Below, in pieces: positions 1-2,633 of a stretch of DNA of 38,091 nt. Below the pieces are notes generated by a model. The model was not told the DNA's origin and did not search any database. It saw only the letters and a list, made by a program, of their open reading frames with translations. Each line of letters begins with the position of its first letter. The stretch's first letter is position 1. Position numbers and translations under genes: made by a program. Where the stretch lies: positions 1 to 38,091 of the forward strand of contig JAKADT010000002.1 in NCBI GenBank assembly GCA_021820245.1, read 5' to 3'. The stretch is from Thermoplasmata archaeon (GTDB lineage Archaea > Thermoplasmatota > Thermoplasmata > Thermoplasmatales > Thermoplasmataceae).

Positions 1-141
1 ACGCCCGTGGAGATCGGATCAATACCTGAAAGGGCAAATCCGGTCGTTGAAACGGGAAGCCCACGTTCTTCAGACGTGGGAGGATGTCACGAATGCATCA
101 GAAAGTCCAAGCAACCTTCCAGTGACGGCGATTGTTCCTGA
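1..141 (+). CDS. TnpB-type IS200/IS605 accessory protein, 3' end only (partial)
   Basis: The frame is open from base 1 to a TGA at 139-141. It encodes a C-terminal tail containing ETGSPRSSDVGGCHE, which matches the way archaeal IS605-family OrfB/TnpB proteins end: a Gly-Ser-Pro segment followed by a Gly-Gly-Cys-His segment, where the coding sequence runs through the right-end hairpin of the element. TnpB is an RNA-guided endonuclease of IS200/IS605 elements. The RuvC and zinc-finger domains would lie left of the window and are not visible, so activity cannot be judged. The last codons appear to be read-through into the flanking azlC gene on the other strand. The assignment rests on this short tail and on the hairpin alone. 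Confidence 0.6.
   Translation, partial: TPVEIGSIPERANPVVETGSPRSSDVGGCHECIRKSKQPSSDGDCS
56..90 (+). mobile_element. Right-end hairpin of an IS200/IS605-type element, possible 3' end of a TnpB guide RNA scaffold
   Basis: Bases 60-66 (CCCACGT) and 74-80 (ACGTGGG) form a perfect 7-bp stem with a 7-base loop, followed by AGGATGTCAC at 81-90. A hairpin followed by GGGAGGATGTCA is the usual right end of IS605/IS1341-like elements. In this family the guide (omega) RNA scaffold ends at the right end and the adjacent chromosomal bases serve as guide. If the border is at 90, the guide would begin at 91, inside azlC. The border is inferred by resemblance only. Confidence 0.6.
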
Positions 142-714
142 TATAACTGCAACCAGCAACCCTTCGACATGATTTACCTTGGGCACAAGGAGGCCGAGAA
201 ACAGTGCCGGCAAAGCAAGTGCAAACGCTCTTATCAGGTCAGATGGGACAATCTTCAGGAGAAACGTGCCGAGCAGTGTCCCAACCACCCATAAAATGTA
301 GGCGTATACAAATATTGACTGCATCCCTCTTTTCCCCAAACCAGGATGAGACACTGATATGGCGTAGGTCTCGTCAGTGAGCAGAGGACTGAGGGAAATA
401 ATGTCGGTGAACTCCAGTTCAGGTCTCTGATTCTGTATATGAGGTCCGTAAAATGTATGCCTGAGATTCAGTAAAAAAGCAGTTAAAACAAGGGAAAATG
501 GGTCTATTCCTATGGTCCAGTAACCAAGAAAAGCAGACTGAACAGCACCAGAATAAACAAATATTGAAAGAGCTGCTGTGAAATAGTACGGAACACCCAG
601 AGATTCAGCAAGGGCACCAAATGCTATTCCTGCAGAAAGATATCCCATTGTAACGGCTGCATAACTGTCGTGCATGGAAACGATATTCAAACCGGAAAAC
701 TTCCCTTCACTCAT
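70..714 (-). CDS. azlC: AzlC-family branched-chain amino acid exporter subunit, C-terminus altered by insertion
   Basis: A 214-residue hydrophobic protein with about five to six membrane segments. The N-terminal pattern MGYLSAGIAFGALAESLG and the following SGAVQSAFLGY and LLNLRHTFYG segments are typical of AzlC, the large subunit of AzlCD-type exporters of branched-chain amino acids and analogues. Its last seven residues (FVTSSHV) and its stop codon are read from the right end of the IS605-like element, so the original C-terminus is lost. The protein is somewhat shorter than the usual 230-250 residues. No azlD is visible; it may lie beyond the insertion. A weak TATA-like stretch lies near 752-762. 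The methyltransferase at 764-1345 is 49 bases upstream on the same strand. Activity without the native C-terminus and AzlD is uncertain. Confidence 0.8.
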   Translation of the reverse strand: MSEGKFSGLNIVSMHDSYAAVTMGYLSAGIAFGALAESLGVPYYFTAALSIFVYSGAVQSAFLGYWTIGIDPFSLVLTAFLLNLRHTFYGPHIQNQRPELEFTDIISLSPLLTDETYAISVSHPGLGKRGMQSIFVYAYILWVVGTLLGTFLLKIVPSDLIRAFALALPALFLGLLVPKVNHVEGLLVAVISGTIAVTGRLLGLSDAFVTSSHV

Positions 715-763: not shown

Positions 764-1345
764 TTATTTCCTTATAAGTGTAAGCAGAGAATATCCCTTC
801 ATTACATCTGACTCCACTGAATCAGAAATTCTGAAAAGTTCCTCAATCTGATTCCTTCTCTTTTCAACAAATATATCTCCATAAAGAAATATTCCGTCGT
901 TCTCAAGTACTCTGTGTATTTCACTGATTCCACTTTGAAAGTCATTGCCGAGGTTATGATAGACAAGACTTGATGCCGCAATTCCAAAATAACAGTCATC
1001 ATAAGGTATCTTTCTCAGATCCGATCTTACAACTGTCACATTCTCACTCATGCCAAGGTGTCGAAAATTTTGAAAGGTTCGCTCCATGGAGTTGTCCTGA
1101 AGGCTTGAATCCGTAAAAATGTCGATAGCGTATATATGTGCATCCCGGAATTCACTGTAAATCAGGTAAGATATGAAACCAAGACCACAGCCTGCATCCA
1201 GGGCCCTGATTGATATTCCATCAGGCAGTTTACCTCTTATATTCTCAATGGCTTTGCTGAACATGGAAGAGATTTCTCTCCTCATTTTTTCAGATTCTTC
1301 CCTGCTGGAATGATGATAAACGCCGAAGTCCACCGTTACCTTCAT
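764..1345 (-). CDS. Class I SAM-dependent methyltransferase
   Basis: A 193-residue protein with a Rossmann-like SAM-binding fold. Motif I is LDAGCGLGFISYLI (about residues 49-62), an acidic residue ends strand 2 (AIDIF), VVRSDLRKIPYDD is motif II/III, and a late strand reads ILENDGIFLYGDIF-like. It resembles ubiquinone/menaquinone-type (Methyltransf_11/25) enzymes; the substrate cannot be read from sequence. Start choice is uncertain. The ATG at 1345 sits only about 10 bases from a strong minus-strand TATA box (1351-1360). If that box is used, transcription would begin near 1333, where an in-frame GTG could be a leaderless start, making the protein four residues shorter. It probably precedes azlC in one transcript. 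Confidence 0.82.
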   Translation of the reverse strand: MKVTVDFGVYHHSSREESEKMRREISSMFSKAIENIRGKLPDGISIRALDAGCGLGFISYLIYSEFRDAHIYAIDIFTDSSLQDNSMERTFQNFRHLGMSENVTVVRSDLRKIPYDDCYFGIAASSLVYHNLGNDFQSGISEIHRVLENDGIFLYGDIFVEKRRNQIEELFRISDSVESDVMKGYSLLTLIRK

Positions 1346-1481: not shown

Positions 1482-2633
1482 ATGATTGTTATGGAAGAAC
1501 TGAAAAGGGACCTTCTGAATCCATTCCCGTGGTATAAGGTAATGAGGTCATCAAAACCAGTATTCAGGGATACTGATTCCGGACTCTGGAATGTTTTCAG
1601 GTATTACGATGTAAAACGAGTTCTGGGAAATTTCAATGAATTCTCTTCACAGTTTGGAAAGGCTTTCAACCCGGCAGGGGGACCTATTTCGGAAAGTATA
1701 ATCAACCTTGATCCACCAAGACACACAAAACTCAGGAACATAGTGTCCAGAGCATTCACACCTAGGGCGGTGGAAAAAATGGAACCTGTCATAAGGGACA
1801 TATGTGAGAACCTTCTCTCAAAACACCAAGGTGGCAGATTTGACATTGTTAAGGAGTTCACGTCACCTTTACCTGTAACTGTTATTGCAACCATGCTCGG
1901 GATACCCATAAGTGATATGGACAAGTTCAAGAAATGGTCAGATAATGTAGTTGGTGGATCACAAAGAGATTTCGCTGAGTTTCCATCTATGATGAAAGAG
2001 ATGGTTGAATATTTCAGGAGAATGATCGCCCAGCGCAAAAGTGATCCAAAAGATGACCTGATAACGGCAATAATCAACGCGGAGGTGGATGGTGAAAATC
2101 TCACCGAACTGGAGAGCCTGGGTTTCTTCATACTGCTCCTTGTGGCTGGAAATGAGACTACTACAAATCTGATCTCCAACAGCCTGCTGTGCATTGATGA
2201 AAATCATGAAACATTCAATGAGTTAAAATCATCACCTGAACTGATACCTCAGGCAATCGAGGAAGTTTTGAGATTTAGAAGCCCTGTTCAGTCAATTTAC
2301 AGGGTAGCAAAGAAAGATACCTTGATAAATGGGACAATGGTCCCGGCAGGGAGCATTATTGTTCCATGGATTGGTTCTGCCAACAGGGATGAATCCATAT
2401 TTTCCAATGCAGATCAGTTCGACATACACCGCAAAGAAAACAGGCACATCGCTTTTGGAGAGGGAATACACTACTGCCTCGGTGCCCCACTTGCAAGGCT
2501 TGAAAGCAAAGTTGCACTGGAAATGCTGTTAAAGGAATATGATTCCATAAAGGTTGATAGGAGTATCCCCATGATTCCACAGAATAGCACAATAGTCTAT
2601 GGGTTGAGGGAACTCACAGTGAAAGTTTCCTGA
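1482..2633 (+). CDS. Cytochrome P450 monooxygenase
   Basis: A soluble 383-residue P450 of the compact prokaryotic type. Visible signatures are the I-helix oxygen-binding stretch AGNETTTN, the K-helix ExxR motif in EEVLRFRSP, and the heme loop FGEGIHYCLGAPLAR, whose Cys332 is the thiolate ligand. No membrane anchor is present. The protein is similar in size and layout to the archaeal acidophile P450s CYP119 and CYP231, which are thermostable enzymes of unknown natural substrate. No ferredoxin or reductase gene is adjacent, so the redox partner must be encoded elsewhere. The gene is monocistronic with its own TATA box and converges on the minus-strand gene ending at 2658 with a 24-base gap. Confidence 0.96.
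   Translation: MIVMEELKRDLLNPFPWYKVMRSSKPVFRDTDSGLWNVFRYYDVKRVLGNFNEFSSQFGKAFNPAGGPISESIINLDPPRHTKLRNIVSRAFTPRAVEKMEPVIRDICENLLSKHQGGRFDIVKEFTSPLPVTVIATMLGIPISDMDKFKKWSDNVVGGSQRDFAEFPSMMKEMVEYFRRMIAQRKSDPKDDLITAIINAEVDGENLTELESLGFFILLLVAGNETTTNLISNSLLCIDENHETFNELKSSPELIPQAIEEVLRFRSPVQSIYRVAKKDTLINGTMVPAGSIIVPWIGSANRDESIFSNADQFDIHRKENRHIAFGEGIHYCLGAPLARLESKVALEMLLKEYDSIKVDRSIPMIPQNSTIVYGLRELTVKVS

What the first reader, a model, noticed from the sequence alone, without database searches (positions are those of the whole stretch)
1..141. IS605/TnpB right end sits inside azlC and supplies its last codons
A TnpB-type tail and a right-end hairpin followed by AGGATGTCAC end about base 90, within the azlC frame. 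The permease's last seven residues and stop codon come from the element. If the element makes a guide RNA, its guide would start at 91 and match the interrupted azlC site, a self-consistent insertion record. Separation from azlD may also have inactivated export.
Basis: partly seen in the sequence, partly recalled or inferred. Interest (0 to 1): 0.55.

Follow-up and report, generated by a model that had tools for sequence, protein, structure and literature searches.

The report
Jumping-gene end truncating an archaeal transporter
An IS605-type jumping gene has landed near the end of an archaeal amino-acid exporter gene (azlC), replacing the protein's last membrane segment with six new residues and separating it from its partner azlD; both edges of the insertion can be shown, but this is an ordinary insertion by a known kind of element.

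Summary
The window starts inside the right end of an IS200/IS605-type element with tnpB, and the element ends at base 90. It splits azlC. Six residues (VTSSHV) plus the TGA come from the element, not seven. The other half of the locus is the end of contig C41 of the same genome: azlD, the missing azlC 3' end, then a left end and a tnpB start. Rejoining the flanks (...GATTAA|GAATGCATC...) gives an in-frame 232-residue AzlC overlapping azlD; this rejoining fits all 8 relatives compared better than the alternatives. A related element's empty site in a sister species shows the same boundaries: target TTTAA, element C...TCAC, no duplication. Right-end copies share three helices supported by covariation, fitting an omega-RNA scaffold. 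The predicted guide (from base 91) equals the interrupted azlC strand next to ATTAA. The TnpB frame in turn takes its last 16 residues and stop from antisense azlC. The allele loses 24 residues (the last predicted transmembrane helix) and the overlap with azlD, so loss of export is likely but untested. This is a well-documented insertion by a known kind of element; guide-to-donor-site identity is generic to TnpB elements.

The parts
1..90 (+). Right end of an IS200/IS605-type element: 3' codons of tnpB plus terminal hairpin; element ends at base 90
   Evidence: Copies in the same genome end at the same base with different flanks; relatives' copies; an empty site in a sister species fixes the ...TCAC| boundary for a related copy
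1..141 (+). TnpB reading frame: 1-90 from the element, 91-138 read from antisense azlC (16 residues), stop TGA at 139-141
   Evidence: Translation
4..80 (+). Omega-RNA-like scaffold with three helices: 4-8/52-56, 15-19/38-42, and 60-65 with 75-80 continued by 67/74 and 68/73
   Evidence: 18 copies: 91.6% of 323 cells paired, 9 of 18 pairs with changes on both sides, covariation score 0.370 against 0.216 shuffled and at most 0.134 slid
87..90 (+). Right cleavage sequence TCAC at the tip of the element
   Evidence: C88, A89, C90 invariant and T87 at least 90% in the 18-copy alignment; empty site of a related copy
91..108 (+). Right flank = predicted guide sequence (16-18 nt), identical to the interrupted azlC strand; only place in the assembly with at most 2 mismatches
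   Evidence: guide position by analogy with ISDra2 (PMC8612924, passages)
91..714 (-). Native azlC codons 1-208
   Evidence: 75% identity to G001 AzlC over query residues 7-209; Pfam AzlC PF03591
70..90 (-). Last six residues VTSSHV and stop TGA of the truncated azlC, supplied by the element
764..1345 (-). Methyltransferase-domain gene, neighbour of azlC also in G001
   Evidence: Pfam PF08241 and others; 56% identity to the G001 neighbour over 193 residues

Best explanation
An IS200/IS605-type element carrying tnpB inserted by single-strand 'peel and paste' just 3' of an ATTAA site (a variant of its usual TTTAA/TTTAT target) on the strand opposite azlC, between codons 208 and 209, without target duplication. 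The element's right end happens to give the azlC frame six codons and a stop. The allele therefore encodes a 214-residue AzlC without its last 24 native residues (one predicted transmembrane helix) and has lost the overlapping start of azlD, so the AzlC-AzlD exporter is probably inactive. If the element is expressed, its right-end RNA would carry the downstream azlC sequence as guide and direct TnpB to the healed donor site. Shown by sequence: element end, both junctions, flush empty-site reconstruction, frame restoration, covarying structure. Inferred: transposition mechanism in this copy, omega-RNA and guide use, loss of function.
For: Right-end copies with different flanks. C41 end: azlD, azlC 3' end, ATTAA, left end, tnpB start; the C41 genes match the G001 neighbours MFS (91% over 163 residues), EamA (89% over 272) and azlD (67% over 97), and the window matches its methyltransferase, in the same order. 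Rejoined flanks give a 232-residue AzlC overlapping azlD. Against 8 relatives the TTAA rejoining scores higher than TTAAC (frameshift) and TTAACAC (one extra residue) in 8 of 8, ungapped across the junction. Empty site of a related element in G036 is TTTAA| with no added base: score 200 against 191-195 for the four retentions tried. In 41 of 44 left-end rows the flank is T[TC]A[ACT] before the element's C, most often TTTAT (14) or TTTAA (13). Covariation. Published archaeal TAMs TTTAA and TTTAT (PMC10640517, passages).
Against: The middle of the azlC copy is not assembled, so its TnpB body is unseen and the pairing of C41 with C62 rests on synteny, frame and the flush join. The genome is a draft (79.56% complete, 125 contigs). 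The azlC target is ATTAA (3 of 44 rows) rather than the commonest TTTAA/TTTAT; 3 of 44 rows show no such motif. One TnpA query found only two broken fragments in this genome, so the source of transposase is unknown. G001's azlC is 75% identical and its site differs, so the exact empty site of this species was not seen, and the TTAACAC model is disfavoured rather than excluded. The second empty-site test (G020 against G002) is weak.
Confidence: 0.93

Rival explanations
1. Assembly artefact: the first 90 bases of contig C62 were extended from another copy of the repeat, and azlC is really intact.
For: The contig begins in the repeat, and its 90 bases are identical to those at C73.
Against: The other half of the same azlC is independently cut at the matching position by a left end on C41, and the two flanks rejoin without a lost or extra base in frame.
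Confidence: 0.03
2. Bases 1-90 are a right-end remnant, and the left end on C41 belongs to another, later insertion or rearrangement.
For: Short derivatives exist in the genome, e.g. a 294-bp copy in C5 and a copy with part of tnpB missing in C114; the middle of the azlC copy is not assembled.
Against: Flush rejoining with correct frame and synteny; the right end keeps the invariant positions of the 18-copy alignment, of which it is a member.
Confidence: 0.03
3. The truncated AzlC with the element-derived tail is kept as a functional variant, or the site acts as a reversible switch because excision would restore azlC-azlD exactly.
For: The frame up to codon 208 is open and azlD has no stop inside; a related copy shows insertion without duplication.
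Against: The lost segment is the most hydrophobic 19-residue window of the protein and an equivalent tail is present in 8 of 8 relatives compared; no evidence of expression, and no empty allele in the assembly.
Confidence: 0.04

Closest known systems
Sulfolobus islandicus IS200/IS605 elements with SisTnpB1 (PMC10640517, passages read)
   Same: Archaeal TnpB element; left flank TTTAA or TTTAT; putative omega-RNA gene at the 3' end of tnpB; right-end sequences conserved except for the 3' end, predicted to be the guide
   Different: Different archaeal lineage; activity of the present TnpB untested; this insertion uses ATTAA
ISDra2 TnpB of Deinococcus radiodurans (PMC8612924, passages read)
   Same: Insertion 3' of a short target without duplication; reRNA covering the 3' end of tnpB and the right end plus about 16 nt of flank
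   Different: Target TTGAT instead of TTTAA/TTTAT-like; bacterial; here no transcript has been seen
AzlC-AzlD branched-chain amino acid transport proteins (Pfam PF03591, PF05437)
   Same: azlC and azlD adjacent in relatives; Pfam matches over cut-off for the window's AzlC and for AzlC and AzlD of G001
   Different: Here azlC is cut after codon 208 and azlD lies beyond the element

Membership tests
IS200/IS605 family element | Subterminal hairpins at both ends | tested here: met
   Right-end hairpin 60-80 with covariation; left-end hairpin read by eye in C41 and other copies, not tested for covariation
IS200/IS605 family element | Insertion 3' of a short fixed target, no target duplication | tested here: met
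   Empty site of a related copy; azlC rejoining; 41 of 44 left-end rows with T[TC]A[ACT] at the expected spacing, 3 without (L119, L127, L051)
IS200/IS605 family element | TnpB gene | tested here: met
   tnpB start on C41, tail in the window; full TnpB in relative L046 matches PF07282, PF01385 and NF040570 over cut-off and holds GIDMG, FEDLN and DRDLNAA motifs (their catalytic role is recalled). The body of the azlC copy itself is unseen
IS200/IS605 family element | Y1 (HUH) TnpA transposase in the element | tested here: not met
   The C41 left end runs into a tnpB start without tnpA between; one TnpA query found two broken fragments in the incomplete genome. The related element L046 does have a Y1_Tnp gene. 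TnpB-only members moved in trans (IS1341 type) are recalled
TnpB omega-RNA system | Structured RNA at the right end, with guide from the flank | tested here: inconclusive
   Structure supported by covariation; no Rfam match at gathering threshold in the window; transcription and guide use not testable
AzlC family | AzlC domain | tested here: met
   PF03591 99.9 bits against cut-off 32.1; TIGR00346 far below its equivalog cut-off (52.6 against 332.35), so the substrate is not established

The most novel reading that the evidence does not exclude
The azlC site is a reversible switch: precise excision would restore a coupled azlC-azlD exporter, while TnpB guided by the azlC flank cuts the healed site and restores the element, so the element holds the exporter off.
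Probability: 0.05. Interest if true: 0.5.

Novelty: new member of a known kind. Interest (0 to 1): 0.25.

Why it matters
It is a clean case in which both junctions, target motif, predicted guide and the disrupted gene can be read together, giving the element boundaries and likely target motif (TTTAA/TTTAT) for a TnpB-bearing element family in Thermoplasmata. It also shows two genes swapping ends: azlC takes a stop from the element and the tnpB frame takes its stop from azlC. The principle is already established for TnpB elements.

Tried and rejected
Left boundary after TTAAC: rejected for azlC because rejoining shifts the frame, and for the related copy because the empty site fits best with no retained base. 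Left boundary after TTAACAC: in frame but adds one residue and scores lower against 8 of 8 relatives; disfavoured, not excluded for this copy. Second empty-site test (G020 copy against G002, L151): right side only roughly conserved, weak support. Rfam at gathering threshold gave no match in the window. No solved structure similar by sequence to G001 AzlC up to E = 1. A genome-contig scan gave three loci: one at 75% that looks like the G001 record, and two at 53-54%. A first target tally mis-anchored 4 of its 41 motif rows; one search repeats it with fixed spacing (41 of 44). Alignment A1 used 18 of the 23 right ends printed, themselves part of those listed; L009, L011, L025, L060 and L140 were left out, and three rows kept (L035, L037, L134) differ from the others upstream of the last hairpin.

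Full report
The window is bases 1-38091 of contig C62 (46804 bases) of a draft genome (1601698 bases in 125 contigs, 79.56% complete). The contig begins inside a repeat, which is probably why the assembly stops there.

Observation. Bases 1-90 match four other places in the genome over their full length (C73 100%, C64 and C51 94%, C114 91%) and three more in part. Read side by side, each full-length copy ends with GGATGTCAC and then diverges. A search of 41 genomes (own plus 40 relatives) shows further copies, most ending at query base 89-94 and a few at 98-104. The element therefore ends at base 90. Frame 1 is the C-terminus of TnpB: it aligns at 90% over 21 residues with a 415-residue TnpB in relative G033, which matches OrfB_IS605, Cas12f1-like_TNB and NCBIfam guided_TnpB over their cut-offs and lies beside a Y1 transposase gene.

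azlC. The minus-strand ORF 714..70 (214 residues, PF03591) is native up to base 91 (codon 208). Bases 90-70 give GTG ACA TCC TCC CAC GTC TGA, six residues and a stop, from the element. In G001 (same genus) the protein goes on with IIVPILSGLLVGVLLVKKRSAKND and overlaps azlD. Seven other relatives (L052-L056, L153, L154) have an equivalent tail, 8 of 8 with G001. In the six whose downstream frame was translated, an AzlD-like protein follows; only that of G001 was checked against Pfam.

The other half. An AzlD search of the own genome gave one hit, C41:15956-16246. The contig ends, reading outward, with azlD, the 3' end of azlC...GGGGACGATTAA, then CACAGTGAGCGGG... (left end with hairpin) and a tnpB start MIRTYKFRIYPKKHQ. 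The C41 end also encodes proteins 89% and 91% identical to the EamA and MFS neighbours of azlD in G001, and the window holds the methyltransferase on the other side of azlC (56%), so the order across C41 and C62 is that of G001 C18. Rejoining the flanks after TTAA gives one open frame of 232 residues ending ...LSDAFLIVPILSGLIVGILLTRRRGENNV, with azlD overlapping. Against the 8 relatives this model outscores TTAAC (frameshift) and TTAACAC (one more residue) each time, with no gap at the junction. The truncated form loses 24 native residues, including the most hydrophobic 19-residue window of the protein (2.24 on the Kyte-Doolittle scale).

Boundaries tested elsewhere. For a full element in G033 the sister species G036 holds the empty site at 92% identity over 258 bases. 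It reads TTTATCTTTAA|ATAGAAATAATCGC with no extra base; the four retained stretches tried lower the score from 200 to 191-195. So that element runs from C to ...TCAC and sits 3' of TTTAA without duplication. A second case (G020 against G002) is consistent but weak. Among 44 distinct left-end rows, 41 have T[TC]A[ACT] before the element's first C, most often TTTAT (14) or TTTAA (13); three do not (L119, L127, L051). The azlC site is ATTAA, seen in 3 rows.

RNA. On 18 right-end copies RNAalifold proposes three helices. 91.6% of 323 cells pair, 9 of 18 pairs have changes on both sides, and the covariation score is 0.370 against 0.216 (sd 0.017) in shuffles and at most 0.134 when slid. The weaker measures are less striking: 12 of 500 shuffles reach the number of pairs with changes on both sides, and 10 of 500 the number of further pair types. 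The terminal hairpin alone scores 0.378 against 0.205; its count of such pairs (4) is reached by 56 of 500 shuffles. The structure was derived from this same alignment, and the rows are related, so these controls are not probabilities. No Rfam family matched the window at gathering threshold. In ISDra2 the reRNA covers the 3' end of tnpB and the right end and ends with about 16 nt of flank (PMC8612924, passages). By analogy the guide here starts at base 91. That the guide equals the interrupted site is expected for any such element.

TnpB side. Eleven of the 15 copies whose frame could be anchored stop inside the terminal hairpin; the window copy, L012, L048 and L059 do not, and three more of the 18 could not be anchored.

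What is not shown: the middle of this copy, its transposase source (one TnpA query gave two broken fragments in an incomplete genome), expression of an omega-RNA, TnpB activity, and loss of AzlC-AzlD function. Literature: PMC10640517 (passages) reports TTTAA for tnpA-tnpB elements and TTTAT for solo tnpB in S. islandicus, and weak effects of most single TAM changes. PMC12558985 (abstract and section list only) reports circular omega-RNAs in archaea. A search for two or more of Thermoplasmatales, IS605 and TnpB held 134 papers; none of the 12 listed contained the word Thermoplasmatales. Other papers were seen as listings only.

Noticed in passing
L013 2270-2563 (G000:C5, 20269-20562): A short (294-bp) copy with left and right ends, inserted after TTTAT, too short for a full tnpB; copies of 259-297 bp occur in G010, G014 and G021.
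   Followed up: partly
L137, L156 (G012:C1) and L097, L157 (G014:C2): 49-bp units that fuse the left-end start, a single hairpin and the right-end tip, next to TTCAA or TTTAA; one each in 2 of 41 genomes by a pattern with up to 3 mismatches.
   Followed up: partly
G000:C114 2284-2554 (in L012): Copy in which part of tnpB seems to be missing: matches to TnpB residues 194-220 and 352-414 lie side by side.
   Followed up: no
L057 1457-2539 (G000:C79): A different 360-residue TnpB-like protein without internal stop in the same genome (PF07282 over cut-off, PF01385 just over), with a left-end-like sequence after TTTAA upstream.
   Followed up: partly
window 1482-2633: A cytochrome P450 gene (PF00067, 135.2 bits against cut-off 22.8) next to the methyltransferase gene.
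   Followed up: partly
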